64,000 nucleotides of DNA from Effrenium voratum (taxonomy: Eukaryota; Sar; Dinophyceae; Suessiales; Symbiodiniaceae). The position numbers were made by a program, and so were the translations under genes. Positions 1 through 59,783 of this stretch are shown piece after piece. The stretch is from assembly GCA_963377175.1 (NCBI GenBank), contig CAUJNA010000578.1, forward strand, positions 36,001-100,000, written 5' to 3'. The notes under the pieces are model-generated. The model saw only the letters and a list, made by a program, of their open reading frames with translations, was not told the origin of the DNA and did not search any database. Positions within the stretch are counted from its first letter, which is position 1. Each line of letters starts with the position of its first letter.

Positions 1-764
1 CAGCGGATTCATGTTGACTGCCTGTCCCATGAGTCCCTCTTATTGTACCGTTTATTGGTGGTTTGTTAGTCTTTGCGGGGGAAAAGCTTGCTGGCAGCTG
101 CTGTCTGACCGGTGTCCGTCCAAATTCGTGCAACTTTACACGCTGCCTGGTTAATCGCATTTTTCAATGGCATCGACGGTTCCAAGCAAAATATTTTTTG
201 CAACTCCAGATGGACGTCGCGTTGGTGATGGAGTTTCGAGGCGAAGCCATTGGAGCTCAGAAAGGCTATTTTTTCCATTTCGGTCAAGTCGAGTATTTTG
301 TTTGTTTTTAGACGTGAGGTTGTTTTATTGGATCATTTGCTTCATTTGCTCGTGATTTGGTCGTTTAAAACCACTTTTTTAAACTTGTTTGGCCGTATGG
401 CCGTGTGACAGTTTTCCAGACAAAACTTTTTGACAAACTGCAGGCACATTTTTTTCCGTCGCTGTGATGGAGGTGTCATTATGAGATTCGCGATGCTTTG
501 TGTGCCCGTGTGCGTCATGCCTTTACGTTTGTCGCTATGTATGTTGCAAGGTCTGTGTGGGGTCTTGTTTGGACGATGTGCGAGGCGCGCCGTTGTTCGT
601 TGCTGGAAGAAGAAGGTGAGTTTGCGAATCCAAAAGCGGGCCCACGTTTTTGTTTGTTCTAGGTATGGCGCGGCCGTTTTGCTGCGTGGTGCTGGGGTCA
701 GTCGGTCGGTCGGTCGCCCGGTCGGCCAGTCGGTCGGTCAGTCGGCCCAACCCTAAACCAGCCT

Positions 765-935
765 TTAAACAAAAAAACAATCCTAAACCAGCCCCACACC
801 AACCGTAAACCCGCCCTAAACCAAACCTCAAACCAACCCCAAGCCAACCCTAAACCAATCCTAAACCAGCCCCAAGCCAACCCTAAACCAACCCTAAACC
901 AACCCTAAGCCAACCCTAAACCAACCCTAAGCTTT
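765..935. repeat. degenerate telomere-like tract (CCCTAAACCAA units)
   Basis: About 170 bp of imperfect repeats built from CCCTAAACCAA and variants such as CCTAAACCAGCC. The CCCTAAA core is the complement of TTTAGGG, the Arabidopsis-type telomere repeat also used by dinoflagellates. The units are too degenerate, and padded with CCAA, for a functional telomere, so this is best read as interstitial telomere-like sequence. It follows a CGGT-type repeat and runs directly into the TTCCACAC minisatellite. Confidence 0.7.
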
Positions 936-9600: not shown

Positions 9601-12600
9601 GGGGACGTGTGCGCGTACCCGGCGGTGAGGACGGGGCAGCGGGTAAGGATCGAGCACTGGGACGTGGCCATGCAGCAGGGCCGAACGGCGGCCGCCAACA
9701 TGCTCGGGCACCTCGGCTGAGTCCACCCGCCCGTGTCCAAGGGGTGAAACGGGAGCCCAGCAGAAGGGTCTCCAGACTGGTCTGGGAGAATCAACAGGGC
9801 AGACTTTGTGCAAACTTGGCCGTACCGTTTTCTTCCCCTGAAAGGGAACATCAACAGGAGAGTGTTCAAATTTTAGTGGAATCCTAAAAAAGACTTCAGG
9901 GCTGGCGAAGCTTTAAACTATGATATTGAACGCCACCTGCTTTTGGCCTCCCGGAACTTAGTTGCCCAACTGCAACCTGGAGGTCGGGCTATTCGAGTTG
10001 CTCCTTGGGTGCTGTTGGCACGCTCCCAAGCGTCCTTTGCGGAGCTCGTAGAGGGTCCCAGATATCTTTGAGGGGAAGTGGTAAAGGAATGTCTCATGTG
10101 AGCGTGGGAAGTGGGCAAGGGAAACAAAAACATAACACCCCTGATGAATGGTTTGGATGTCTTGGTCCAAAGTGCCATTGAAGGCCTATGCGTTTCTTGC
10201 ATTGCATTTCATCTATGGAAGTACGCCTGGTGTATGAGGGTCGTGAGGTGTTTCTTGAACATGGGTTCGGGTCAACGTATTTGGTTGCAGTTGCTGCACC
10301 TATTGAATTGGTTATGCGGTCTAGTCGCATCCAAATGACATTTGCTCCGAAATCAGAGCCTATTCGAGCCCTGGGCTTGATCCTGGGCAGACTCGTGTGT
10401 GTGGGCAAACACGCTGTAAGCAGTCCCCCTTCACTCAGCAAAAGCTTGGTCGCCGAGGAAGTTCCAGCCATTCACGACCACACCCTTCTTCTGGTCAGGC
10501 CGCACTGATTCTCACTAGCTGACTCAGCCTGAATTCACTCCTGAGCAGTTTTCGGGATGAGTGATTTGGAGGTAGCGCGCATGAATTCAACAAGAGAGTA
10601 TCCAAGTCACCAATTGTGTTTTCCCTTCTTCAAGCTGTTCTCAGCCTGGGCTGGCGCAGCCTTGCGTACTTGCTTGTGGGCAGCCCAGTGTGCGAAACTG
10701 GGCTTGTGAGATATTAACGTGCCTAATGTGTACACACACACACGTTTGTATATGCATATGTACATACATATGTGTAGATATGTAGGTGTATGCACAACAA
10801 GCTATAGCACATGTCATCCATATGTATTGGCTCATGTTTTTGGCGCTGCTCACATTCTCATTTGGTTCTTTGTGTTTTTTCTCGCTCATGGGCAGTTCGC
10901 CCAACACCTTCGCAGGCCTCTTCGGGAACGTGAACCTCCGCTTCGTGGGCCATGCGCCGGAGGCGCTGGACCGAGTCATCATCGAAGGCGGGGAAGCGAA
11001 GCAGAAGGCTTGGGGGGACCAAATGCGAACCTCAAAACTCCTATATTCATAGGGGGATTCAAACGGCTGGTGTCAGGGTGACATGTCTTGATCCACCCAG
11101 CTTGCTTAGTTTGGCCTTTGCAAAGCAAGACCTCTCTCAAAAACCAAAAGCCAAAGAGGGCGACGTTGCAGTAGAGCGAAGGTTGGTTGAGGGTGGATGT
11201 GTTGAGGCTGTTCCTTCTGATGTAGCTCAGTGGCAATTTGCAGGCTTTTGAATGCCCAAGGCATGATGTCCCCAAATTCGGGTTGAGTCTGTTTGGCTTG
11301 AGGTAGTCAGCAAACGGACCCCCTTGTTTTACTTTCGTCGCTGCGTCAGGCGACGTCAGCACCATGGAGTTTGTCTCGTACTACACAGAGGACCCGGGCA
11401 CGAGACGTCAACAGGTAAGACCAATGTCATTTGCGATGGTCGTTGCATGACTTGCACTTGTGCTTCTGGTCGCGGTGTGGCCTGCCCACACCGCGTCCCC
11501 AAAGCATCGCCAGGGGTTTTGGGCTTTGAAAGCTTCGGCCCGTGGCGTTTTCATCTGGACAGGCCCAGTCTCCGGGTGAAGGCCTCCAGGAGCCTCAAGA
11601 CAATGACAAGCGATTGATGGCGTATGCCAAGGAGGCCGTATGACAAGACGCCTACTCTCGCGCCAAACCAATCCTTACTTCCACAATCCCACACAAGCTT
11701 CCGAACCAGCCCCTGCCAGGCCAAGACCAACCATGGAACAAGCCTGAACCAATCCTGAATCAGGCCTATACCAACCGCAAGCCAACCCTAACTGACCACG
11801 GGGGTGGGCTGCCAAGACTGGATCGTTCGCAAGCCGGTCTGAGATTCCCCTCTGGACTCCCCAAAGGATCTTTGCCACTTTGAAACCATGCGAAGCCATT
11901 GTTCATTTCCAGGAGAATCACATTCCATGGTCGCTTAGGTGGCCTAGGATTTCGTCCATCCACAGCAGAGCAAAACTAAGTTCTAGTTGTGAGCAAGCAT
12001 TGCACATGAGGCTGCTCTCTCCAAATGTTGGGTCCATGGAGGGTCAGAGTGAGACCGCCCGAAACTCAAACTGCTTTCTGACGACAGCTCAGCCCAACAG
12101 TCCAAGGAACGCGACCTGTGACAAGCAGAAAAGCAGGGTCAACCTGAGGATGACGAGGTCCGGGCGGTGGCCACGGTGAATCGGGACCCTGTGGCCGTGG
12201 TTGTGGCGGAGCTCATGCGGAGGGGCCAGATGCCCAGCGTGTCCGAGCTGATGCTGGGCACCTTGGCAGGGACAGGGCCTGGCTTCTGGGGAGGTCCCAA
12301 CCGGCGCTTATCCTGGCCTACTTGCTGTTTGCCTGTGTCTGGCTTTTTCGTAGGGCTGGCGCTGAAGCCAAGACTGGTCCAAATGAGTCTGGTGATGCTG
12401 GTGATGCCGCCTCTTCATTTAGGTGCGCGCCAAGCCCTTCGAAAGAACACAGCTTCTACCCTTGTTTTGGCTGCCCATGAGTTTTTTTTTTTTTAATTAA
12501 CGGAAGTCACCGGAGATCGAAAATGCGTAATTTTTGCCATGTTGTGGATCGGTTTGACGCTGCGCTTTTTCTATTAGTGAGGCATTCTATTCCTCACGAA

Positions 12601-24371: not shown

Positions 24372-27300
24372 GTGGAGTGGCTGCGCCAAGAGCTCGAACG
24401 ATGCCAGGCGGAGTCAGAAGACAACTGCTTATGTTTCTTGAGAACTCTCTTGGAGTCACCGCCAGCGCCCTAAGCATTGGACGGAAGGTCTTGGAATACC
24501 TTACTCTTTGCAAGGTCCTGGAAAGCCTTGGAAATGGTTGGTTGGTTGGTGTTATTTCAGGCGGAGCGGACCTTTGCGGAGGAGTCTCAGCGGGAGCTTG
24601 AAGCGAGGGTGGAGTGCCTGGTGCCCAGAGGGGCCTGCCGGTGTGTGTGGGTGTGTTGCCTGAAGTTTCGCTCAAGTAGGCCGTGAAGGGCAAGGAGAAA
24701 CCCGTTGGCCACCTCACCCAAAACCTGGCGGGTAATCCAAGAAGTGTTCATCCAAGTAGAGTGATGGTTCCTCTTCAAAGAGCGAAAGATGTCTGAAGTG
24801 TTCACGCGGAGAGGTGGCCTTCAAATCCCAGATTGATATGCTTCATCCTTCTGCCCAACATGTTTTGACACATGGTCAATCTGGCGCGAGACAAGCGTCT
24901 CACGAAGCCCCATGCTTGCGAGCATCAGTTTCAAGCACGTTTTGGCGACGAGGCCAGCGTCAAGCCTTCGAAGCAGAGAGGCCGAGCTTGGGTTTGGTGC
25001 GAGCAACGGTTCACCCAGATCCGACCAGGAAGACAACCTCCGAGTAGCCTCAATTCTCATCCGGTTGGCTGGCTTCTACGTGCTTGCCCTTAAGATGCAT
25101 ACGCAAATGAGACCTGCACCTTTTTCCTTAGCACTGGGACGGCGTGCAGTCCAGGCATATGATGCACACTTTCAGAATTGCTCGCCTCTTCCTCCTCACC
25201 TGGGATCTGACATCAGCGCTACTGTAAGGCTTTGCGAAGCCCAACGGGCGTAGAAGACTGAAGGTTTCACAGCCATGGGCGATTTGCAGTTTGTGTTTCG
25301 CCCTTTTATTTTTTTTGGCCGGGGGGGGGGGGGGGCAGAACGTTGTAGCACATGCCTCCAGGGCTTGAACCCCCATAGGCGTCTCTAGAAATCCAACCAG
25401 TGGTGATGGACACCCGAATGTTCGATTATGCTTGTTTTGGACGCTCCCCAACAGGCGCAGGCCCTGTGTAGGCCCCGGTGGTGCCACGGTTCATTGGAGG
25501 AGGTCAAAGGCTGGCCATGAAAGGTTCTTAGAAGCTAGGGTTGGGAGGAAACCAACAGCTTTCAGTGGCCTGGGGTTTGATCAGGCAGCAGATGTTGCGC
25601 CGAATGGCGCACTTGGAGTCGGAGCGCCGCCGGGACCCTCGGAGGATGCGAGCTGTGCAGCATGTCCTGATTAACGTGACTCAACCAATCTGGCTGTGGG
25701 TCAAAACCAATGGTACCATTTTGGGGTAGGTGCACCACTCATTTTAGTCTATTTTAGTGGGGATTGGGATGTTCACTGGGGGTACGGGCTTTTGACCCCT
25801 GACCATATAGAGCACACATGAGCAAACATATGTGTGGACAATTTGGAAACACACGCATGAAGATACGTGTTTGTATGCAGATCTGTATTGTTGAACATGT
25901 ATGTGCGTTTTCTTGGTGCATGTGTCACTGCAGGGCCCACTCTAATGAAGTTTAGCTACCCGGGATGAGCTCTGAACTCCAAGCCCGCAGAATCCATGTA
26001 CTAGGTATGTGGTCGAAATGGCTTCGGGGACGGCGCGGGATAGCGCAAGAGAGAAAGAGAGAGAGAGAGAGGTAAGCACAAGAGCCAGATTATGCGGACC
26101 CACACTTAGATGGAACAATTTCACTGGGCAGAATGTCAAAGAGTCAAGGTTTTTTCTTGGGCCCACCTGTGAACCAAACAGCGGGCACAGGATTCTAGCT
26201 GCGACGCGCTACCGCTCTGCAGCATGAGCCTTTGCCGGAAAATCAGGGCGTGGTTTCGTTGACGGTCTCTTTTCGCCGCAGCTGCTCCCTGTTGCCGGGT
26301 CACCAAAAGGTGTGCAGCATTTAGTTTTCTCCCGTAGCTTGCTGTGGGTGTGCCCTCTCCATGCCTACTCCCAGCGGCAGCTCGGACCGGCTGGGCGAGC
26401 AGCAGGCGGAGTGTGGACATCGTGCATGCGCGTTTGGAACCTGTACTTGTTTCATATCATCCTTTGGCTGAACCCCGGAGAGGGGGACCAGGGATCTGAG
26501 ATAGACTGCATGGCTGCGTGGGGTCCGAGGGTGGAAGAGCGTGGAGAGTGCTGCGGGCTTGGTGCATATGTTTCTGGTTTGAGTGAGTCAGCCCAAACTT
26601 CAATGCGTGACGACCAAACTCTTCTGGCCAGAATGACCCACGCATTGGCTTCAGAGTCATTGAGGCAAGCCAAGTTCGGCCACCACACCCGCGGCTGGCA
26701 GATTTCTTCCGGGGCTCGCTTAGCCGATCTAAATGCCTATGTTTGAGGCAGGGGTCCCCTACATTTCCCTTAGCCGGTCTCAATATCATCCAATGCATCG
26801 GCGTTTCATCTTGGTGGGTGTGTGGACGGAACTCTTCAGGTGGATGAGCTGAAGCAGCAACTGAGGCGGGAAGTGGAAAGCGAGCCAGCCCTTGTTTTCC
26901 CGGAAGTCAATATGTTCCCTTTCATAGAGGCTCCCCTGAGGGAAGCCACAGGTGACGGTACGTGTTCACCCACTCTGACCGTGCAAAGCTCGAATGCTTG
27001 TCAACCATGAACCTCCCAAAAAACTAAAACAGTGGTTTCCAATTTGGTTGAGGGTTGAAGCCAACCTGAAAAGGGTACCCCTAAAAAACACGCAGTTCAA
27101 CAAGCCGACCTGGATTGGACCTGTGCCATCTACTTTCACCCATTTGTCACCCACATTTCTCTTTTTGGGAGGGGGGAACCTGCAGGCCCATCCGGTCGAA
27201 GCGACCTTTTTCACGACTCCGCAACAGGGGAGTCTCCGACGTCTCTGCGTCCGCGTCTCCATGCGCGTCTCCGCGTCTGAGTCGTCCCGAGGCAGCAGCT

Positions 27301-30300
27301 GAGGCGCGACCTGGAGGATCTGCGCCAGGAGCTGCGGCAAAGCTACGGGGCGAGCCTCGAGGTCTTGTCCAGCCGCGTGGCCAGCCTCGCGGCCCGGCTT
27401 CGGGGCCGGTTGCCTGGGGAGGTGTTTGAGCGACCGGCCGGACGGAAGTTGTGTGTAAACTACAGGTGCTTAAAAAGTGTAACGGGCATGGCCCAGTGGC
27501 CGGTGGTTTGGTTTCTGAGGTGTTTGTGGGTTCGCATTGTTTGCACTTTGTTTTTCTCCCCTTTGCTTTGTGGTACGACTTGCGTTTGGGCAAGTCGTGA
27601 TGTCCTTGCCTTTCCGGACTTGGCGTTTTGTGGCATCCCTGCCCAAGGAGGCTCGGATGAAGACCCATCCCATGGTCGTGAAAGCCAGCACGGATGACAT
27701 TGCTTCGACCTCTGAGAGCCCAGTGCTCAACGTCAACCGGGAAACAACATGGGACAGTGAGGGCCACTCTGTGAATGTGGGGGAGGCTCAGTCGGTCCCA
27801 CATGAAGATGGCCGTCTCACACACGCAGACATCGCAATGCTGAATGAGGCGAATGAGGGGATTCAGAATCAGAACTGCATGGCGAACCTCACACAGGGAG
27901 TGACGGAGGAGGAATCAAAAGATCTCACAGCCTCCCAGGCGCTGCGTAAGGGGAGCTATGGTTCTGTCGCCATCAGCGAGAGTGTATGGAGTTTTCCACT
28001 TGTTTTCGGCCTTGCAAGAGCTGGGCGCTTTGATTCCGTCTATTCCGTGCTGCTGCTCCTCCTGAACTTGGGCATGCAGGCTATGTTCTCGGGCATCTTG
28101 ATGTCCGAGGGCTTCATGGGGTCCGACTTCTCGCATGAGGCCAGGTGTGTTTCGGCACAGTTTTTTTCTTCCTGGAAACTCGCGCTGGACACGGTTTTGC
28201 CGCCTCATTTAAACTTCCAAGTTTCCCTTTGAGGTATGGCATGGGTGTGCTTCTCATGCCCTTCTATCCCAGCAGAGATTGCTCAGCATGGTGTTGAGGC
28301 TCTCACTGGATCCCCCCTCCTGCCAACACGGAACAACCCATCCTTTGGCGAAGGCCGACCCAAAAAACTTGCGCAACCACCCGAACCCACCTGACTTGGT
28401 CCATTGAGGTGGCTACATTCAGTTCTCCATGCGACAGGGTCTAGTCTGTTCGCCAGAGGGTCTTTTTCTTTGTTTGCAGTGCCGAAGCCAGGTCTCGCAC
28501 GCGAAGCTTTGGCGGACCAGCGTGGCCCACGACATCAAGTATATGGACCTAGCGGCCACCAGCCTGGCGACCCGGGTCTGCAAGGATGCCAGAAGGGGGA
28601 AGGTGGTGGGGGGCATGGGGGGATGGGGATGCGGGCGAACTGAAGCACCAGAGAAGTATGCCATGTTTTTTTTCTTTAAAAAAGGGGACACCTTCATAAG
28701 GGCCCTGCCCACCAGAAATGGTTCAAAGTCCATTTGCCAGGACGATGGTGCGTTGATCTTGGCGCCTAAGCAAGCAACCCTGATCAGCAACATCAACAGC
28801 TTCATGGGCTTGAAAGTGGACCAGTTTACGCCGGGGCCGTTCCAGCTTCTTGGCCGATCAGCTTGCTGGTGCCCCCGGCTTCCGGCTTGTTTCCAGTTTG
28901 GAGATGGTACTAAGGCCTGGAACTCTGCTTTGCATACTTTGCATCCTCCTCTGGAGCCTGTGTGTTTACAAGGAGTTCCGCGCCCTCTCGCTGTCTGCAG
29001 AAGCGTTGCTGCAGCTGCCGCGGTCGCGCGGAACGGTGCTTCAGAGCAACATGCTCATGAGCTTGTCCAGAGGCCGCTTGGCAATTCTGCTGGGGGTGTC
29101 CATGATCCGTGCGGTGATCGCGGGCGTCCTGTTGGGCGCTGGAATTCTCTGGCTGGCCCGCACCACATCCATCACAGAGCTGATGCTCAATGCCGTGGCT
29201 TTGAATGCGATCCTCGACGTGGATGAGTTCCTCTTCGCCGGGTTCACGCCCATTTCCATGCAGCTGGCGGTCCGGAAGCTGCAGCCCGTGAGGATCAGGT
29301 ACAGCGCCCGCCGCAGCCACGTGGAGTCCGTTACGCTCATGGTCCTCCTGGCGACCACCATGCTTGTCCCTTACTTCGTCCTACTGAAGCCACAGTCGGA
29401 CACAATGTTGCAGGTGAAGTGGGAGCTCTGCGGTGGCAACCGCACCTTCGTGGTGTCCCGCAATGCGGAGACGCAGCTCATCTCTGGCTTGGTAACGGAG
29501 GACAGCCGAACTGTCGATGAGCTGTCGGTGAGTGAAATAGCGGTGGACACGCACAAGTTCCAATCGCCTTACGAGCCGGCTGTCTACATTTCCTTCGCAA
29601 CAAGCCAGGCGCAGCTGAACCGAGATCGCATTGCATCTTTGGAGCAGGAGACGCAGAGTTTCACCTTTTGCGTTGAGACGGACTACTTGCATGAGAATGG
29701 AACGCTGCACCATGACACCAACCTGGAGCCCATTGTTTTGAGCCGATTGCGGGCTGCGGCTGCAGCACTGGGCCGGTTTGACGTGTCTGGGTGCGAGGAT
29801 GTGGCTGACCTGTGCCTCCTGCCCTCTGCGCGCCTGCTGCGGATGATTTGTGGCGACACGTGTGGCTGCACCGACCCTTTGTCCTCTGGATGGCACCTTG
29901 CCCAAGGTTTAACCGTTTGCCAGGTTTACTTTGGCTGTAAGCCATGCCCAAGTACCCAAGAATGAAATGACGGGTGTAGACATTTAGTGCTGGCACCACC
30001 TGGGACGTATTTCACAAGGGCAGCCCCTTTAATTTTTGTTGTTTGTGATGGGGTATCTTGGTTGACCAGCCCCCCGCCAAGTGAAGCAGCTTGTCATGGA
30101 AGTTTCTTTTCGCATGGTTGTCGCTGGTCGGGTCAATTGAGCTAAGCAATTGCCTGTCAGACCTTCACCTGTGTAAAAGTTGGGATAGACAGTGCCGCAG
30201 GATCCAAGAAGTTCGGCATCTTCTATCTCAGGTCTTAATTGTTGAACTGGCAATGACATGGATGCGATGCCTTGCGCCTTGCTGGGGCCCCTCCGGTTGA

Positions 30301-31739
30301 ATGTGCTACTTGGCGGTCCAAACCAGCAGAGCAACAGTTGTTTTTGTACGTCCAGGATGTGGCAAATTCTGACCGACAGTTTGACACCCAAGGTTGGTCT
30401 CCCAGGCCCGTTGAATCAAGGCTTGTTTGCTCCCGGGTAGGATCTTCAACCTCTCACTTTCAGGCCCCCCTGGGTCCGGGGGCGGTTTCGAATTGGGAAT
30501 GGCGTGTGGACCAGGACCCCAGGGGGCGGCACTAAGGACCGGATTCTTTTTTGTTTGTTTTTTGTTCGTTCCTTTTTTCCGTTTCGGTCCGATGAGCACC
30601 TGGTTCATGATTCCCTTTTCGCCCTCGGAGCGACAGTGCCTTTTTTTTTTCTCTTCTTGTTTTTTTGCGGCCCCGCGCCGGCCCGCGTGGCAGAAGCCGC
30701 AGCCGTGGGTGGTTCGGGCTCACGCCCGGTTCAGCGGGCTCACAACTGACTTGGGGAGATCGTGTCTTTGGCGGTGACAGCAGCCAGGTGGGAGAGCAGT
30801 TGGTGCGCGTCCAGCAGATCCAATCAACTCAGAGTGCTTTTGCTGCCATCCTGGAGGACGGCTTTGTGGTGACAAGAGTGTTCAGCAGATCAAAACAAGT
30901 GCAGGTGCTTTTGCTGCCATCCTGGCCGACGGCTCCGTGGTCGGTGGTTCGGGCTCACGCCTGGGTGGAGCGGGCTCAGGCCCGGGTGGTTCGGGCTCAC
31001 GCCCGGGTGGTTCGGGCTCACACCCGGGTGGAGCGGGCTCACAACTGACTTGGGGAGATCGTGTCTTTGGTGACAGCGGCCAGGTGGGAGAGCAGTTGGT
31101 GCGCTATTGCCGCCATCCTGGAGGACGGCTTTGTGGTGACAAGTGTGTTCACTTTTGCTGCCATCCTGGCCGACGGCTCCCTGGTGGGTGGTTCGGGCTC
31201 ACGCCCGGGTGGAGGGGGCTCACGCCCGGGTGGCTCACGCCCGGGTGGTTCGGGCTCACGCCCGCGTGAAGCGGGCTCACAACTGACTTGGGAGATCGTG
31301 TCTTTGGCGGTGACAGCAGCCAGGTGGGAGAGCAGTTGGTGCGCGTCCAGCAGATCCAATCAACTCAGAGTGCTTTTGCTGCCGTCTTGGAGGACGGCTT
31401 TGTGGTGACAGGTGTGTTCAGCAGATCAAAGCCCTGGGTGACGGCTCCGTGGTGGGTGGTTCGGGCTCTCGCCCAGGTTGTTCGGGCTTCTGGCTCGGGC
31501 GCGGGTGGCGCGGGAATCGGGACATTGTCTTCATGCATTTGGTCAGTGTCAACCTGGCCCTTTTTTCGGGGCGATTTTCGGTAACGCACCGGCTTCCCCC
31601 TTCTTCCCCCCTCCTTCCCCTTGTTTGTTCTAGCCGTTTGGCTGGCAATGACGCATGCGGAGCCAGTCCCGGGCCTGATCCCGAGCGGGCCACCGCTGGG
31701 GGGAGGCTGCCCGGTTTGTGGCTCTGGTACACCAGAAGC

Positions 31740-31818
<79 letters not shown>

Positions 31819-32654
31819 CAGGTGAAAACGGGTTTGTTTTCCTGGCAAGCAGGCAACAAGTTCAGTTTTTTGGGCAGGGGGTAGCCACCAAGTATAGGAT
31901 AGGGGGGGCTGGGGCGGATGAGGCACAAGGTGCCGGCGCACGGGTGCACGGATTCCTGCCTGCAGCTGGCCCGGGATGAGATGGCCACTCTGCCATGCCA
32001 GGACCAGCCGATTGGCCCCAGCGCCTGGGCCTGGTGATCAACAGGAATTTGGGGAGAATTGGGCTGAACCATTCCGATTTTTCGAGTGTAAAGCCCAAGG
32101 CATGTGCACTGGACCATTGTTTGGGGTTGATGAGCTCCTTTGAATTCGCTCCAGTTGGCCAAGCTTCGGGCGGAAGCCTTTTGGCTTGGAGGTCTGGCAA
32201 GCCTGAAGGGTGATGTTTTTGCTTGCAGGTCTTGCAGGCATTGGTCCAAACAGATGTGAATGGGGTACTGCCAAGAAGGCCACCTTTTTGGAGCAGAGAT
32301 TCCTTGCAGAGATTTACATCCAGTCGAGGTTGGTTGAACTTCTGGGATACGTACATCCCGGCCTTGTCGGACTTCTTCGTGGGGCAGAACATTTCGAAGA
32401 CCTCCTTTGGCCCGGAGATGCACATGATCAAGGATGTCATGAAGGCCAACGGCTGCTCAGCGCTCCAAGATCCCGCATATCAACTTGACGTGGCCTCCTC
32501 GACGTCGTGGTGTGAAGGTGACCCTTCCCTTTTCCGACCACTCTCCTGGGTTTGCCCCGAGAGCTGCGGCTGTTTGGGTGAGAATCCGCCTCTCTCGTGT
32601 CCTACACGTTGTGCACGTTGGAATGAGTCTTCGCCCAATTTGACCTTGGATTGA
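24372..32654 (+). CDS. gene A: coiled-coil, multi-pass membrane protein with Cys-rich tail (5' end not found)
   Basis: Predicted exons: 24372-24407, 24561-24595, 25585-25651, 26840-26853, 27292-27418, 27648-28139, 28492-28584, 28741-28844, 28915-29892, 31923-32014, 32329-32654 (TGA). From 27292 on, this gives 736 residues in continuous phase, confirmed against paralogue B. Order: heptad-like segments (VEWLRQELERCQ, then LRRDLEDLRQELRQ); an acidic linker; a membrane segment IYS/VYSVLLLLLNLGMQ; TLLCILCILLWSLCVY; a further hydrophobic pair around ILWLARTTSITELM; LMVLLATTMLVPYFVLL; an extracytoplasmic domain with N-glycosylation sequons (NRT, NGT); and a Cys-rich tail (CGDTCGCTDP, WVCPESCGC). Function unknown; I recall similar proteins only as uncharacterised. 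The exons before 27292 are less certain, especially the 14-nt one. The 2-kb intron 29893-31922 holds minisatellites. Confidence 0.75.
27648..28139 (+). CDS. gene A exon: acidic linker and first membrane segment
   Basis: This 164-codon exon begins EARMKTHPMVVKAS, runs through a Glu/Asp/Asn-rich linker and ends in the first hydrophobic segment, then GSDFSHE. It exits through a GC donor (28140-28141) in phase 0. Paralogue B is continuous across this point, so the following intron is absent from B. The linker differs from B's, which has ATPGN repeats instead. Confidence 0.75.
28915..29892 (+). CDS. gene A exon: membrane core and extracytoplasmic domain
   Basis: This 326-codon exon runs from PGTLLCILCILLW through LARTTSITELM, ILDVDEFLFAGFTP and the last membrane segment into a soluble domain ending CGCTDPLSSGW. 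It corresponds to parts of two exons in B, because B has an intron after VEQ (35539-35846) where A is uninterrupted. Bases 29516-29637 are identical to 35407-35528. The exon ends before GC at 29893-29894. Confidence 0.85.
30690..31440. repeat. compound minisatellite in gene A intron
   Basis: Two repeat types alternate. One is a G/C-rich 16-19 bp unit (GGTTCGGGCTCACGCCCG) in runs of one to five or more. The other is a roughly 115-150 bp unit starting CTGACTTGGGGAGATCG and containing GGTGACAGCAGCCAGGTGG, with copies at about 30747, 31046 and 31282. The middle copy has an internal deletion. The nested pattern implies amplification of a composite unit. Confidence 0.85.
31742..31817. repeat. CT dinucleotide microsatellite
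   Basis: About 75 bp of CT repeat with one CTTT interruption, within the large intron of gene A and about 105 bp before the acceptor at 31922. It could lengthen the polypyrimidine context of the intron; no function is shown. Confidence 0.9.
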
Positions 32655-33059
32655 TCATTTTGCATGTGAGTCAGCTGCTAAGCGCAGTTTCAGAAGATTC
32701 ACAGGATCACAAGAGGGCCAAGCCGCAAGGTGCCTGTGAAGCAGGCCCGAGCAAAAAGCTTGGCCCAAACCTGCTATGGTACGTCGTGGTGTGAAGGTGA
32801 CCCTTCCCTTTTCCGACCACTCTCCTGGGTTTACCTAGAGAGCTGTGGCTGTTTGGGTGAGAATCCGCCTCTCTCGTGTCCTACACGTTGGGCACATTGG
32901 AACCAGTCTTCGCCCAATTTGAACCTGGATTGATAATTTTGCATGTGAGTCAGCTGCTAAGCGCAGTTTCAGAAGATTCATAGGATCACAAGAGGGCCAA
33001 GCCGCAAGGTGCCTGTGAAGCAGGCCCGAGCAAAACGCTTGGCCCAAACCTGCTATGGT
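32502..33059 (+). repeat. 279-bp tandem duplication of gene A last exon and 3' flank
   Basis: Two adjacent copies (32502-32780 and 32781-33059) start ACGTCGTGGTGTGAAGG and end CTGCTATGGT. Copy 1 contains the last 50 codons of gene A with its stop plus 3' flank. Copy 2 repeats this with scattered substitutions, including WVCPESCGC to WVYLESCGC and TRCARW to TRWAHW. Confidence 0.92.
32781..32933 (+). pseudogene. duplicated terminal-exon fragment of gene A
   Basis: Coding part of copy 2 of the tandem duplication. The frame is open through the TGA at 32931-32933, but two Cys codons conserved in A and B are lost (PESCGC context to LESCGC with C to Y, and TRC to TRW). There is no upstream exon of its own, and A's stop codon precedes it. 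It could act as 3' UTR or as a rare alternative last exon; a decaying fragment is more likely. Confidence 0.65.
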
Positions 33060-33446
33060 AGCTACATGTTCGAAGCGCATGCTTTGGCTTTTCGTCGCTG
33101 AGTCTATGTAGACCGCCACAAGTTTTTTTCTTGTTGAAAGCGACAACGAAGTGACGCCAGCCGCGGTCTCGGGGTACGCATCCCTAAGACCTTTCCATTT
33201 TTGACTTGGCATCCTCAGCAGAGCTGGGAGATGCAGGCCGTACAGTTAAAGAGAAAGATCTTGAGCTGCTGTGCTCGTGTCCTGTATTTTTTTGGGGGCA
33301 ACATTTGCTCAACAATCCTTCCCTGGGTTGTGCCACGTTCCCATATGCAGTGGACGCACAGAGCACCATGTCCTTGCAGAAGTTGAAGGGCATTTGGTTT
33401 CAAATTTACGTCCTCACACCCGGCGGCCTAGCTTGGGAAGCGCTTT

Positions 33447-33930: not shown

Positions 33931-36900
33931 ATGCTAAAACCTGCTTATGTAAATGGACCCTGGAGGATCTTCATGGCTGAAGTTGGGAAGCCCACCCAAA
34001 AGGAGCACGCAGACGATTGCTCGCCCATTTGTTTGAGCCAGGGAGCACTTGGCTTAAAGATCGCAATGCCAACTCCGGACATCCCCGAAGTTGTGCTCGG
34101 CCAACTTCAGGAAGAGCTTCGGCAGGAGCTGCTTTCGGAACTGCGGGAGGAAGTGCTGGAGGAGGTGCGGCAGGACTTTGGGCCGACCATTGCAGGGCTT
34201 TCGCAGCGCATCGCTGCCTTGGAGAGCGCAGAGAAGGGCACAGTCACCGTCGGCAGCCCGGTGCTCCAATTGAACTGGGAAGACTCCTGGGACGGGGTTA
34301 AGCCAGATTTCGCCCAACCAGGGGATGTGGCGACACCAGGCAATGTGGCGACACCAGGGAATGCGGCGACACCAGGAAAGCAATCGGAAGGCACAACGGA
34401 GTCAGAAACAGTGCAAAAGGGAAGGCAGGGTTCTGTTGCCTTCGGCGAGAGTGTATGGAGTTTTACAGTTGTTTTCGGCCTTGCAAGAGCTGGGCGCTTT
34501 GATTCCATCTACTCCATGCTGCTGCTATTGCTGAACTTGGGCATGCAGTCCATGTTCTCGGGCATTTTGCTGTCCGATGACTTCATGGGCTCCGATTTCT
34601 CGCAGGAGGTCTTGCATGCGAGGCTTTGGCGGACCAGCGTGGCCCACGATATCAAGTACATGGACCTGGCGACCACTAGCCTGGCGACCCGGGTGTGCAA
34701 AGATGACGGTGCCCTGATTCTCGCCCAGAAGCAGGCCACGCTAGTGAGTCACATCAACAGCTTTATGGGCTTGACAGTGGATGAGTTCGAGCCAGGACAG
34801 TTTCAACCAGGGGTGCTGCTGTGTGTACTCTGCATCCTTCTTTGGAGCCTGTGCATTTACAAGGAGTTGCGCGGCCTCTGGCTGTCTGTGGAGGCAGTGT
34901 TGGCCCTACCGCGCTCACGGCAAACTGTTTTGCAGGGTCATATGCTTCTCAGCTTGTCCAGAGGCCGCTTTGCAGTGCTGTTGGGTGTCTTCCTGGTCCG
35001 CGCAGGGATCGCAGCCGTGCTGCTGGTCGCAGGAATCCTTTGGCTGGCGCGCACGACATCCATTACGGAGCTGATGCTCAATGCTGTGGCTTTGAATGCG
35101 ATCCTCGACGTGGACGAGTTCCTCTTCGCAGGGTTCACGCCCATTTCCATGCAGCTGGCGGTCCGGAATCTACAGGCCCCTAAAGTTAGATACAGCCAAC
35201 GTCGCAGCCATGTGGAATCCATGTTGCTGCTGGCCCTTCTTGTGACGACGATGCTTGTTCCGTATTTCTTTCTGCTGAAGCCGCTGGCAGAGACGATGTT
35301 GGAAGTGAAGTGGGAGCTTTGTGGCGGCAATCGCACTTTCGTGGTGTCACGCAATGCGGAGACGCAGATCATCTCTGGCCTAGTAACTGAGGACAGCCGA
35401 ACTGTTGATGAGCTGTCGGTGAGTGAAATAGCGGTGGACACGCACAAGTTCCAATCGCCTTACGAGCCGGCTGTCTACATTTCCTTCGCAACAAGCCAGG
35501 CGCAGCTGAACCGAGATCGCATTGCATCCGTGGAGCAGGAGAAAGTCTTAAGCCGACCAAATCTGATACGGTTTGTGGAAGGGTTTGGGCTTAGGGTGTC
35601 TGGTTGGGGAGGGTTTTCGGGTGGGTGAGTCAAGGGTGGGTTTAGGGTTGGTCTACGATACATTGAGGTGCGTTCAAGGTCAGCTTAGAGCCCGGGTGGG
35701 TTTAATTGTTCGTTTAGGTGGGTTCAGTGATGACTTTCAAGATAGGTTCAGGGCTTGAGGTTTGGCTTAAGGAAGGTTTTGGGTTTGCCCAGGGCGAGCA
35801 AAGGCACACAAGCGACGTTTGGAAGCCAGCGGCGCGCTTGCCGCAGGAGACGCAGAGTTTCACCTTTTGCGTCGAGACGGACTACTTGCATGAAAATGGA
35901 ACGCTGTACCATGACACCAACCTGGAGCCCATCGTTTGGAGCCGGTTCCGGGCTGCGGCTGCAGCACTCGGCCGGTTTGACGTCTCTGGGTGCGAGGATG
36001 TGGCTGACCTGTGCCTCCTGCCCTCTGCGCGCCTGCTGCGGATGATTTGTGGCGACACGTGCGGCTGCACCGACCCTTTGTCCTCTGGATGGCACCTTGC
36101 TGAAGGTTTAACAAGGTCATCCCCGGCACTTTTTGGTTTACTCGCCACGCACTTGGATTGAGCTGTGTGGCACGCGCCATTGCCCGGAGAACCCTTGTTA
36201 CTTCGGAGCATTTCGGGCGATTTTTTCCATCGCAGGTCGGTGTTCGTTTCCCTCGGGTCGGGTGTTGCGAAGGCACAAGGTGCCGGCGCACGGGTGCACG
36301 AGTTCCTGCCTGCCGGCCCTGGATGAGTTGGAAGAGCTGCCCTGCCAGGACCAGCCGGTGGGCCCGAGTTCCTAGGCGAACACAGCAGTGAAGCCGCTTG
36401 TAAAGCGTGTCGCAGTGTGCGTTGCTCCAATCCTATATAATTCTGTTCCGACAGGTCTGCTATATCCAGTGTTGTCAGAAGAATCGCAAACGGATTCGTC
36501 ATTGAATTCATCATCAGCATTCAAGGTTACCGAGTTTCGACGCAACTCCCTAAGCACGACTTCCAATTCAAAATTAGCGACTGGGCTGACAAAGCTCAAA
36601 ACATTCAAAAAGACTGAATGCCAGCACGAATCTCAATCAAATGACCCAGCATGACTGAGGAGTACGCATACCATGTAATTTCCTGAAGCGTTATCAGAAG
36701 AAACAACAGCGGCTCAACAACATGACCCAGCAACACTGGGTTCAGGTCTGGAGGCATACTCCGGAGGGACTCCTTTTTAGACCGGTTTTGTGAGGTCCAG
36801 CTCGCATCAAGTCATCAAGTGTCCTTTGGCCTTTTTTGACGCCTCTCAAAGGTCTGCAGATGTGCAAAGAATTGCCCGAAGTGGATGTTGTTGTTTTGGG

Positions 36901-37469
36901 GACCTCTCCAGATTTCGGGTATGTAAGTAGCACTCCGGGCTTTGCTGAAGGGCAATGAGTGCCATAGATTGAATTGAACTTGAACTTGCCATGGCGTTTT
37001 CCATCACAAGAGGTTGGCTGGACTTTTGGGATACCTATTTGCCTGCGATGTCCGACTTCTTCGTGGGGCAGAACATTTCAACCACTTCCTTCGGGCCGGA
37101 GATGCTCTTGACGGTGGAGGTCATGAAGGCCAAGGGCTGTGACGCGCTGCAGGAGGGTTGGTTGACGTTGAAAGAAGCAACCCGGTCCGCCTTTCGCGGG
37201 GAAACCAAAAGGAGGTTCTTTGAACAACAGGTGTTTCATCGCCTGGTTAAACCCAGGTTGAATTGCCCAACCCCGCGCAGGACTCCCAATTTCAACTGGA
37301 GGTCGCCTCCTCGGCGCGATGGTGTGAAGGCGACCCTTCTTTATTCCGACCCCTTGCCTGGGTTTGCCCCGAGAGCTGCGGTTGCTTGAGCGAAAATCCG
37401 CCCAGCTCTTGTCCCACACGCTGTGCAGCAGTCAACCAGACGTCGCAGCCCAATCCGGCATCAGATTGA
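33931..37469 (+). CDS. gene B: tandem paralogue of gene A, coiled-coil multi-pass membrane protein
   Basis: Exons: 33931-35538, 35847-36091, 36273-36361, 37013-37152, 37281-37469 (TGA), in phase throughout. Start candidates are ATG 33931 (756 aa), 33973 (742) or 34066 (711). Counting from 33973: coiled coil at about 41-86 (LQEELRQELLSELREEV); ATPGN repeats at about 117-137; first membrane segment about 178-200; second about 279-300 (VLLCVLCILLWSLCIY); third about 333-360; a hydrophobic ILDVDEFLFAGFTP region; last about 417-438; then an extracytoplasmic domain with NRT and NGT sequons and a Cys-rich tail (CGDTCGCTDP, HGCTSSC, WVCPESCGC, CPTRC). The family is not recognised. Donors are GA (35539, 37153) and GC (36092, 36362). 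Head-to-tail with A on the same strand. Confidence 0.85.
35539..35846 (+). other. intron present in gene B, absent from gene A
   Basis: 308 bp with a GA donor and AG acceptor. GCAGGAGA occurs at both exon-intron boundaries. Removing it joins VEQ to ETQSF exactly as in the uninterrupted exon of A. The intron is rich in GGTTTAGGG- and GGGTTTGG-like words, so it resembles degenerate telomere-like sequence. It begins 10 bp after a 122-bp block identical between A and B. Confidence 0.8.
37153..37280 (+). other. second intron present in gene B, absent from gene A
   Basis: 128 bp with a GA donor and AG acceptor. GCAGGA is present at both boundaries (CTGCAG|GAGGG and GCGCAG|GACTC). Gene A reads straight through at the matching place (ALQDPAYQLDV, where B has ALQ then DSQFQLEV). 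Small size plus flanking direct repeats fits an introner-like insertion; loss from A is the alternative. Confidence 0.75.
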
Positions 37470-56462: not shown

Positions 56463-58478
56463 CTTAAGGGTAAGGCAGCTTGATGCGCATGCTGAAAGGG
56501 GTTTGGGGTCATCTAAGCAGGAATGAGTCTTGGCCGCCAAGAGGAACAGGCTTGAACTGTTTTCCGGGAAAAACTTCACTATGAAACCGCCTCTTCTGTA
56601 CGAGCAAAATGCGTTGTGTTGGAGCCCAAATTCTGCTCGTATTTTGGCAGATTGGGCTTGCGTTTGCGGCAATTGCGAGTTTTCACAAAGAAAGCAGTGA
56701 TCTGCAACAAATCCTGCATGGGCACATTTTTAGGGTTTTGGCCACACACGACATAATACGGAGCAGAACGTGTTTTTTCTCACTAGGCGTTTCTCAGAGG
56801 CCCCAGGTTCCCCGTGAACCAACTCCGAACAAGCTCCGAACGAACAAACTTTGAACGAACTCCGAACGAACTCCGAACGAACTCCGAACGAACTCTGAAC
56901 GAACTCCGAACAAGCGAACAAGCTCCGAGCGAACTTTGGCTTTGTTCCCGAGCCAACTCCGAACACACTTTGGCCATAAGTATGTTTTTGAGCCCAAGTA
57001 TTTTGGTGGCCAAGCGTTTTTTTTTTTTTTTTTGCTTTTTTGTGCTTACCAAAAAAGGCCAAGTGATCAGGGGCCAGTTTCAACAAGTGGCCTGGGAAGG
57101 TGTTTTTTGAGGCAAACACACATGTTCTCAGGGCACTTGTTGAAATTAGTTCTTTTGGTCGCTTGATTTTCCTTTTATGTATGTTTCGGGCTGGATTTAC
57201 TTCCCGGACAAGCGCCAAACAAACTTTGGCCATATTTTTCTTTGGGGGAGCTGATTTTTGTGTTTCGGCCTTAAGTTTCAGTTTTTCGGCTTTGTTTTGT
57301 TTTATTGCTCTTTTTTTTCAGGCTGTGATGTTTGCTTTTTTTTTGGGGGGGCTTAATTCTTGCCCCGGACGAACTCCGAACGAACTCCGAACGAACTTTG
57401 GCCTTAAGTTTTTTTTGGAGCTTTTTTTTTCTTCCCTCCTCAGTGTTGAACTTTTTGGGTTTTGGTCGTGCAACAACACTGGAATTACAGCTTGTTGATG
57501 CGTTTTTCGTACAAATTAAGTGTTACCAGGGCAACACCAAACATTGAAACATGCTTAATCCAGGTTTTTCATGCAAAAAAAAACAGCTATTTCATACGAC
57601 CAAAATCGGGCAAGCCATTACACAAATCGGGCAAACCCTTAAGTTCAACACCGGTGCTGAACTTAAGCTCTTTTTTTTGGAATAAGGTTTTTTTTCCCGG
57701 ATTAAGCCTTGATCAAAAAGATTACGCTTTATTTCAGCTTCAACAGCGAGCCTCAGCGTCAACCAAGCTGCGTGATCACCCCGGTAACGATTTTAGCCCT
57801 CCGCAGCTCTGAAGTCCTACCCTGAACGTCTTTCCAGGCCACTTGTTGAAACTGGCCCCTGTAATCACTTGGCCTCTTTTGGTAAGCCCGTAAAAAAGCA
57901 ACAGAAACAGTTTGACCACCAAAATACTTAGGCTCAAAAACATGCTTATGGCCAAAGTGTGTTCGGAGTTGGCTCGGGGGTTTGTTCGGAAATCAACCAA
58001 TGACAAAGCTTGCTCGGAGCTTGTTCGCTTGTTCGGAGTTTGTTCCAAGTTCGCCCGGAGTTCGTTCGGAGTTCGTTCGGATCGGAGTCTGTTCGGAGTT
58101 TGTTCGGAGTTTGTTCGGAGTTGGTTCACGAGGAACCTGGGGCCTCTGAGAGACGCCTACCAAGAAAAGCACGTTCTGCTCCGTATTATGTCGTGTGTGG
58201 CCAAAACCCTAAAAATGTGCCCATGCAGGATTTGTTGCAGATCACTGCTTTCTTTGTGAAAACTCGCAATTGCCGCAAACGCAAGCCCAATCTGCCAAAA
58301 TACGAGCAGAATTTGGGCTCCAACACAACACATCTTGCTCGTACAGAAGAGGCGGTTTCATAGTGAAGATATTCCCGGAAAACAGTTCAAGCCCTGTCCT
58401 CTTGGCGGCCAAGACTCATTCCTGTTTAGACGACCCCAAACCCCTTTCAGCAGGCGCGTCAAGCTGTCTTACCCCTAA
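56463..58478. mobile_element. 2-kb foldback (long inverted repeat) element
   Basis: The left arm (about 56463-57108) is closely matched, in reverse complement, by the right arm (about 57822-58478), around a spacer of about 710 bp. Arms start GGGTAAGGCAGCTTGATG and end with its complement. Each arm contains a cluster of GAACTCCGAAC direct repeats (56820-56940; complement at 57955-58130). The spacer holds further GAACTCCGAAC units near 57367-57395 and a 30-bp near-perfect palindrome. No transposase was seen. Structure fits a non-autonomous foldback transposon; target-site duplication was not clear. Confidence 0.8.
57638..57667. repeat. 30-bp palindrome in the foldback spacer
   Basis: CTTAAGTTCAACACC is followed at once by its reverse complement with one mismatched base pair, giving a near-perfect hairpin centred on ACCGGT. 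It lies inside the spacer of the foldback element. Confidence 0.8.
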
Positions 58479-59783
58479 GGCTGAGCGCGCAGAAACGCGC
58501 GGTCCCCTGGGAAGCAAGCAAATTGATTCTTGTTTCGAGGAAACTGGCATCACTAGTGCACTTTGAGATTTGCTGCAAAATCTGGGCTTTTCTTTTTTTG
58601 GTTTTGGCAAACCCTTAAGTTTGAGTAAAAAACCTTATTTATTCTTTTTTAGGACCTTAAAACACCCAAATCCCGAACGAACTGACCTGACCCATGAAAT
58701 TTGGCAGTTCCCACCAGAACTTGCTTACCGTTTTTGACCCCGCGTTCTTGGGGGTGGGTGGGGGTGCTTGTGGTTGTGTCTTCGCAGAATTCTGGTTGTC
58801 GGCATACGCATTGTTCATCCTGCAGGAAAGCAGTATGCCGCATGCCCTCGCTTGCCTGACCATTTGGTGCATCTTTGTGTTTCCTTCCTTGCCTAGCGTT
58901 CGTTTTGGTATCTGTTACTGTCAATTTTTTGCGGAGTAGTTCCAGGGAATCACAAGCCCGCCTTCCAGATTACACGAATCTTGGGGCCCCGCACCATCCC
59001 CGTGTCGCGAGACATGATCTGCAACCTTCGGGTGCTCTTCGCTTTCAACGTTCCAACGAAAGGGCCCGGACGTGGAAGTGCTCCAGGGCTCCATGTCAAC
59101 CGTCCCTGAGGCATGCAGCGTTCACTTGGAGCATATCGGTCGAAGCCTCGCCAGGAGCTCAAGGAGCCAAAGGAGCTCAAGCCGAAGCCGGAGGACAGGC
59201 TTGGCCCCTTCAATGGATGCCGGTCTTCGCAGGGCGGGTTTGTTCCAAACCCCGGCAAGAGAAAGGAAGCAACAGAGCCCGTTGCCACACACACATGTTT
59301 CTTGAGGGCACCCTTTTTGGGGTAGTCTTGAAGGACAGCCAGAAGGACGCCGCGATTTTTGGTTCGCGGATGACGGGCTCCGCAGGAGAGTGTATCCTCT
59401 GTGTCGCTGGAGTTTTCCATGGATGGCGTGGAGGCAATGCGGTCGAGGGTCGGCCTTGTGGCTGGGTTGTTGTTGTCTGCCTTGTTGCAGTTGTGTGCCA
59501 CTGCAGGTCGCGGATTGGAATTAGGGACCCTCGCAGTTTGTGTATGGTCCCCTGCTACCGGGCACCCGTGTCCGGGCCTGATCCTGACAGCGTGATGTGC
59601 TGTGATTTGAGGATGCTGGACTTGTCACTGTCGCAAAGGGTCACATGCACAATCGTTCTTTGGGTGCATACGCCCACCTACTTCAGGGGTCCCTAACACG
59701 GGATGATGATTTAGGGGGGAGAGGTTCTCGGGAGCCCTGTGCCTTTGATTTGGCGCATGCTTGTAGGCCCGTGGCTTGAACAC

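What the first reader, a model, noticed from the sequence alone, without database searches (positions are those of the whole stretch)
35531..35856. A recent intron next to a near-identical coding block, flanked by an 8-bp direct repeat
B's intron 35539-35846 begins 10 bp after the block 35407-35528, which is identical to A, and is followed by sequence nearly identical to A. GCAGGAGA occurs at both ends, like a target-site duplication or microhomology. Because the neighbouring exon sequence has barely changed, the intron must have been gained by B or lost by A very recently. It has a GA donor and telomere-like words inside.
Basis: partly seen in the sequence, partly recalled or inferred. Interest (0 to 1): 0.85.

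Follow-up and report, generated by a model that had tools for sequence, protein, structure and literature searches.

The report
New intron built from minisatellite DNA
In a free-living dinoflagellate, one of two neighbouring sister genes carries an extra 308-base intron that the other copies examined lack; it looks like a one-off insertion of repetitive, telomere-like DNA that probably became removable because it is flanked by a copied 8-base splice-like word.

Summary
B has a 308-bp insert, X (35539-35846), between two copies of GCAGGAGA; sister gene A has one copy, an exact empty site. B encodes a full 713-residue protein only if X is removed, most simply as a GA-AG intron whose donor and acceptor both lie in the repeat copies. 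The organism is Effrenium voratum.

In the window's own genome the X site is unbroken in A and in 12 of 12 paralogue loci examined, so X was most likely gained in B. X is not shown to be an introner: each end was found once in the assembly, there are no terminal inverted repeats, and the four other matches touch only its core. That core (35567-35794) is a decayed 11-bp minisatellite array, GGTTTAGGGTT, also found elsewhere; this explains the telomere-like words.

"Very recent" does not follow: A and B exons are about 0.7-1.0 dS apart except in a gene-conversion tract around X, so flank identity dates the conversion. The 8-bp repeat is only modestly above splice-site expectation (0.7-1.9% per intron).

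Best reading: one-off gain by capture of minisatellite DNA at a proto-splice site. No RNA evidence was available. B has a second private GA-AG intron, Y.

The parts
34066..37469 (+). Gene B: exons 34066-35538, 35847-36091, 36273-36367, 37013-37152, 37281-37469; 713 residues
   Evidence: Joined exons give one open frame to a stop, aligned end to end with A
35535..35542 (+). Left copy of the 8-bp direct repeat GCAGGAGA; holds the GA donor (GCAG|GAGA)
35539..35846 (+). Intron X, 308 bp, GA-AG, private to B
   Evidence: splicing is inferred, no RNA
35567..35794 (+). Core of X: decayed tandem array of 11-bp unit GGTTTAGGGTT
   Evidence: 157 of 237 aligned columns identical to the repeated unit; controls
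35843..35850 (+). Right copy of GCAGGAGA; holds the AG acceptor (GCAG|GAGA)
35407..36112 (+). Gene-conversion tract with A on both sides of X (X itself not shared); reaches about 21 bp into intron i4
   Evidence: 2 mismatches left of X from 35407, 12 of 266 right of X to 36112, then loss of similarity; dS change
36092..36272 (+). Intron i4 of B (GC-AG), at the same place as A 29893-31922
36368..37012 (+). Intron i5 of B (GT-AG), at the same place as A 32021-32328
37153..37280 (+). Intron Y, 128 bp, GA-AG, second intron private to B, with a 6-bp repeat GCAGGA
   Evidence: single copy in the assembly
26361..32654 (+). Gene A, 9 exons, 8 introns (7 GC-AG, 1 GA-AG); lacks X and Y
   Evidence: Joined exons give 752 residues plus stop, close to the E. 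voratum protein P0001
29644..29651 (+). Empty site in A: single GCAGGAGA
747..930 (-). Array of the same 11-bp unit elsewhere in the window
11665..11792 (-). Second, decayed array of the same 11-bp unit
   Evidence: Score 42 against at most 18 in 200 shuffles

Best explanation
X is a spliceosomal intron gained by gene B of Effrenium voratum after the A/B duplication. About 300 bp of DNA, mostly decayed 11-bp telomere-like minisatellite, entered the coding word GCAGGAGA and left it duplicated, probably by repair of a staggered break that took up this DNA as filler. Because dinoflagellate splicing accepts GA donors and AG|G acceptors, the two copies of GCAG|GAGA supplied a donor on the left and an acceptor on the right, so the insert could be spliced out with the protein unchanged. 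A gene-conversion tract between A and B, before or after the gain, made the flanking exons alike. Shown: insert, repeats, empty site, absence in A and 12 paralogue loci, minisatellite core, ends found once, conversion tract. Inferred: splicing, break repair as the route, and the order of gain and conversion.
For: Exact empty site in A. B is open over 713 codons only with X removed. Site unbroken in 12 of 12 fetched paralogue loci that cross it, several with introns elsewhere, and in P0001, probably from another isolate. Minisatellite core shared with arrays elsewhere in window and genome. Each end found once in the assembly, no terminal inverted repeats, so no sign of a mobile family. GC|GA-AG introns make up 25-74% in Symbiodiniaceae (PMC11453091, passages). 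Direct repeats at new introns are read as staggered-break repair in Daphnia (PMC4202315, passages).
Against: No RNA evidence, so the intron and its GA donor are inferred; a GT donor at 35545 with two extra residues is also open. The 8-bp repeat is not far above chance. No source array closer than 74% was found, which fits a recent copy badly, though arrays may be unassembled and the search skips simple repeats. The array could have grown inside X after the gain. A decayed transposon cannot be told from a repair patch by one copy.
Confidence: 0.5

Rival explanations
1. X is an introner relic: a non-autonomous DNA transposon inserted with a target-site duplication of 8 bp (or of 4 bp, GAGA, with a carried GCAG acceptor), from a family now decayed, unassembled or reduced to one copy.
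For: Introners are reported in 5% of E. voratum genes (PMC11114475, section read), and co-option of both splice sites from the target is a known introner mode (PMC9860276, section read in part). Families judged low-complexity were filtered from that survey, so one with a minisatellite core could be missing from it. Many introns of this gene family have 3-5 bp repeats at their borders.
Against: Each end found once; core matches only at 70-74%; no terminal inverted repeat. Intron Y is also single copy, and a 2.5-kb stretch with six introns of A gave no copies beyond two of about 45 bp. No known introner was run as a positive control.
Confidence: 0.25
2. A lost X: the intron was present before the A/B split and A deleted it exactly, by end joining across the 8-bp repeats or by conversion from cDNA.
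For: A deletion between the repeats would leave exactly A's sequence.
Against: 12 of 12 fetched paralogue loci of the same genome that cross the site lack X, and the Fugacium model P0050 has the length of an intronless locus by its record name and reads through the site. The similarity runs about 21 bp into intron i4, so the converting template was genomic DNA.
Confidence: 0.07
3. X is an ordinary insertion that broke a redundant gene: B is a recent pseudogene and X is never spliced.
For: B was not found among annotated proteins of matching length, and no RNA was available.
Against: Apart from X, B has no frame break over 713 codons with i4, i5 and Y removed; dN/dS against A is 0.13-0.22 in five of eight regions (0.33, 0.33 and 0.94 in the other three). 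The insert edges fall exactly on a usable GA/AG pair.
Confidence: 0.13

Closest known systems
Introner elements (PMC9860276; dinoflagellate introners of Roy et al. 2023, known here only as cited in PMC11453091)
   Same: Insertion into an exon, possible target-site duplication, splice sites co-opted from the target, mRNA length unchanged.
   Different: No second copy of the ends found, no terminal inverted repeats, simple-repeat core.
Neointrons of Daphnia pulex formed at double-strand breaks (PMC4202315, passages)
   Same: Insertion flanked by a direct repeat, absent from other copies, source sequence usually untraceable, internal repeats common.
   Different: Those are population polymorphisms; here the contrast is between paralogues and polymorphism is unknown. 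The filler class is identified here as a minisatellite.
Symbiodinium sPCP intron gains (PMC4201569, passages)
   Same: Gains in Symbiodiniaceae at potential splice junctions that exist in intronless relatives.
   Different: The term 'direct repeat' does not occur in that text and no source of the inserted DNA is given in the passages seen.
Amphioxus minisatellite 'mirages' (PMC3087553, passages)
   Same: Proposes intron gain that involves minisatellite-like repeats and reports degenerate repeats in one gained intron.
   Different: There the repeats duplicate the exon-intron border itself; here the repeat is a dispersed family unrelated to the exon.
Amoebophrya introner elements (PMC7789003, passages)
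   Same: Dinoflagellate non-canonical introns with direct repeats over the borders.
   Different: Those have 8-20 nt inverted repeats and 3-5 nt direct repeats; X has no inverted repeat and no unusual hairpin.

Membership tests
Introner element | Several introns alike from end to end in the genome | tested here: not met
   Full X: only itself at full length, four core matches; 66-bp 3' end and 72-bp 5' end each found once. Limit: the search skips simple repeats and common words and scores only best candidates.
Introner element | Terminal inverted repeats (in part of the families) | tested here: not met
   End-to-end inverted similarity at shuffle level, p 0.47-0.83 at four lengths
Introner element | Target-site duplication (in part of the families) | tested here: inconclusive
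   8-bp repeat with single-copy empty site, but 0.7-1.9% of random splice-like site pairs give as much
Spliceosomal intron of dinoflagellates | GT, GC or GA donor and AG|G acceptor, frame restored | tested here: met
   GA...AG|G; restores 713 codons
Spliceosomal intron of dinoflagellates | Removed from mRNA | not testable with these tools
   No transcript data; no annotated B protein found
Break-repair neointron | Insertion with direct repeat or blunt joint at a site empty in relatives | tested here: met
Break-repair neointron | Identifiable filler source | tested here: inconclusive
   Family of the repeat identified, source locus not: best other match 74%
11-bp minisatellite GGTTTAGGGTT | Tandem periodicity of 11 with the family unit | tested here: met
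   Score 56 against at most 44 for 200 permuted units; lag 11 is the best of lags 4-40, p 0.03
Interstitial telomere (TTTAGGG)n | Runs of TTTAGGG | tested here: not met
   One perfect TTTAGGG in X; repeat score 29 for TTTAGGG and 44 for TTAGGG against 56 for the 11-mer with the same scoring; all three exceed 200 shuffles

The most novel reading that the evidence does not exclude
Telomere-like minisatellite DNA is a recurrent raw material for new introns in dinoflagellates. Because AG|GT, AG|GC and AG|GA can all serve there as donor and acceptor borders, any insertion that duplicates such a word is spliced out from birth, so repair patches of simple repeats become introns without a dedicated transposon. 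Such introns would tend to be discarded as low complexity by introner surveys.
Probability: 0.15. Interest if true: 0.75.

Novelty: new member of a known kind. Interest (0 to 1): 0.45.

Why it matters
The A/B pair gives a polarised case of intron gain with an exact empty site, with the class of inserted DNA identified and both splice borders lying in the duplicated target. It points to intron gain that does not need an introner family, in a lineage reported to gain introns fast, and it warns that near-identical flanks around a private intron may date gene conversion and not the intron. If repeat-filled gains prove common, part of dinoflagellate intron birth has been filtered out of surveys.

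Tried and rejected
Retrocopy origin of B: no spliced-leader relic upstream of A or B, both scores at background level; B keeps introns i4 and i5, so at most its 5' part could be cDNA-derived. Interstitial telomere: the 11-mer fits better (56) than TTAGGG (44) or TTTAGGG (29), though all three exceed shuffles. Terminal inverted repeats: none in X; Y has a weak 7-bp one, p 0.07. RNA hairpin: z -0.14, 41 of 100 shuffles fold as well. Relatives of A in viral contigs: none. Similarity to phages: none. Annotated B protein: not found with a 578-residue query or with A+B joined to reach longer models; shorter models than 318 residues were not searched. Pfam on P0001 and nine open frames: nothing above cut-off. 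Copies of other introns: Y single; six introns of A, only two matches of about 45 bp. B introns i4 and i5 and a genome-wide count of the 11-mer were asked for and never answered. Literature: introner+minisatellite gave 2 papers, listing seen, neither about this by title; minisatellite+dinoflagellate+intron gave 7, 6 listed, of which I saw passages of PMC11508785; intron gain+minisatellite gave 7, of which I saw passages of PMC3087553. All 10 searches used. The open library lacks Roy et al. 2023 and the Crypthecodinium intron paper PMC5032977.

Corrections made on checking: one search had the donor of B i5 one base off, mended and measured. One search also prints a left-flank mismatch number made with a wrong offset; it is void, and one search is the valid count. 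One search missed loci lying on the minus strand and was replaced; one search failed.

Full report
Organism and genes. The spliced B protein finds as best match P0001, an Effrenium voratum protein, 71% identical. P0001 is the product of gene A; my A model gives 752 residues plus stop against its 752. The window is G000:C578:36001-100000 of a 1.156-Gb, 3699-contig assembly. Four contig lengths of that assembly equal those listed for E. voratum proteins P0002, P0047, P0055 and P0090. P0001 is listed on a 263,881-bp contig, unlike C578 (194,889 bp), and differs from A in a few N-terminal residues, so it probably comes from another isolate; there too A reads through the X site.

Observation. BLAST pairs B 34816-35542 with A 28925-29651 and B 35843-36112 with A 29644-29913: the eight bases GCAGGAGA are used twice by B and once by A. 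At the site nothing else is gained or lost.

Is it an intron? Unspliced, the frame stops at 35626-35628. With X removed as GA-AG (35539-35846), and i4, i5 and Y removed, B gives 713 uninterrupted residues. A GT donor at 35545 would add Glu-Lys and keep the frame. Donors in the models: A seven GC and one GA; B two GA (X, Y), one GC (i4), one GT (i5). No transcript was available, so splicing is inferred.

Polarity. Protein B against its own genome gave 67 aligned pieces, from 63 scored of 111 candidates, a lower bound. Of the paralogue loci fetched, L008-L019 cross the X site and 12 of 12 are unbroken there; 11 of 11 (L008-L018) are also unbroken at i4, i5 and Y. Two more pieces of the table cross the X site by coordinates but were not fetched. 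Thirteen introns elsewhere were modelled in nine of these loci, so those nine are not plain retrocopies. In a tree of 17 rows A and B are sisters at 99/99; the conversion tract helps that grouping, and the program warned of long branches. Gain of X in B is the simplest history; i4 and i5 look gained in the A/B ancestor, and six introns of A (between 26406 and 28914) are absent from B.

Age. Synonymous divergence of A and B is 1.9 in the poorly aligned N-terminus, then 0.68 and 0.66 up to 35405, 0.033 in the block, 0.119 right of X, 0.17 in the next exon, then 0.98 and 0.86. Mismatches are 118 of 591 left of 35406 and 12 of 378 from there to 36091 (p 6e-16). Similarity enters intron i4 by about 21 bp and then breaks, so the template was genomic DNA. 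The tract spans X without sharing it: X came after the conversion, or the conversion left a 308-bp heterology alone. Against a very young X: its array is 66% identical to the unit and no match better than 74% was found elsewhere. A fresh copy should have a close source, unless that source is unassembled or skipped by the search.

What was inserted. X is G+T rich (0.653; 1.1% of 308-bp windows reach that). Positions 35567-35794 match the repeated unit GGTTTAGGGTT in 157 of 237 columns. The score is 56 against 11.8 +/- 2.9 in 200 shuffles; 200 permuted units average 19.6 and reach at most 44; the best lag of 4-40 is 11, p 0.03. With the same scoring TTAGGG reaches 44 and TTTAGGG 29, also above shuffles. 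The unit equals the telomeric TTTAGGG of dinoflagellates (PMC11508785, passage) plus TTGG. The window holds two further arrays, at about 747-930 and 11665-11792, on the other strand. The four other genome matches to X lie in large arrays of this family. In 95 kb of paralogue loci (overlaps counted twice) one further weak array was found.

Introner test. The 3' and 5' ends of X were each found once, Y once. Inverted ends and hairpin are absent. A 2.5-kb stretch with six A introns gave, besides exon matches, two matches of about 45 bp. No known introner was run as a positive control, and the search skips simple repeats and very common words. So no multi-copy family is visible here; a rare or decayed one is not excluded.

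The repeat. Border repeats in the family are 1-8 bp: 12 introns in A and B and 13 in nine paralogues (junctions chosen by score with a small bonus for AG|G). X is the longest, Y has 6. At 0.68-1.9% per intron, 0.17-0.48 repeats of 8 or more are expected in 25. X could also be a 4-bp duplication (GAGA) with an acceptor GCAG that happens to match the exon.

Mechanism. Both splice signals lie within the repeat copies: GCAG|GAGA on the left gives the donor, on the right the acceptor. Any insertion that duplicates such a word is removable where GA donors are allowed. Introners that co-opt both sites from the target are known (PMC9860276), as are break-repair neointrons in Daphnia (PMC4202315). I favour repair capture because the ends are unique and the content is simple repeat, and keep a decayed transposon as the main rival. 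GA donors and such borders are ordinary for this lineage, which is why I file X as a new member of a known kind; the minisatellite filling is its unusual part.

Noticed in passing
37153-37280: Second intron private to B (Y, 128 bp, GA-AG) with a 6-bp GCAGGA repeat; absent from A and from 11 of 11 paralogue loci crossing the site; single copy in the assembly.
   Followed up: partly
26406-28914: Six introns of gene A (five GC-AG, one GA-AG) that B lacks: B is one open exon from 34066 to 35538. Intron turnover between the two sisters is very high.
   Followed up: partly
29516-29913 and 35407-36112: Gene-conversion tract between A and B, ending where intron i4 diverges.
   Followed up: partly
32502-33060: 279-bp tandem duplication at the end of gene A, which copies most of its last exon.
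   Followed up: no
56463-57099 and 57830-58479: Inverted repeat of about 650 bp, 88% identical, with 11-bp arrays (GAACGAACTCC) inside.
   Followed up: no
747-930 and 11665-11792; L002-L005: Dispersed 11-bp minisatellite GGTTTAGGGTT, a telomere-like unit plus TTGG, in arrays up to more than 1.5 kb.
   Followed up: partly
gene family of A and B (P0001-P0107): Membrane-protein-like family of Symbiodiniaceae with at least a dozen loci in this genome and no Pfam domain above cut-off in P0001; record names such as VPS11-like or NLRC3 look unsupported.
   Followed up: no
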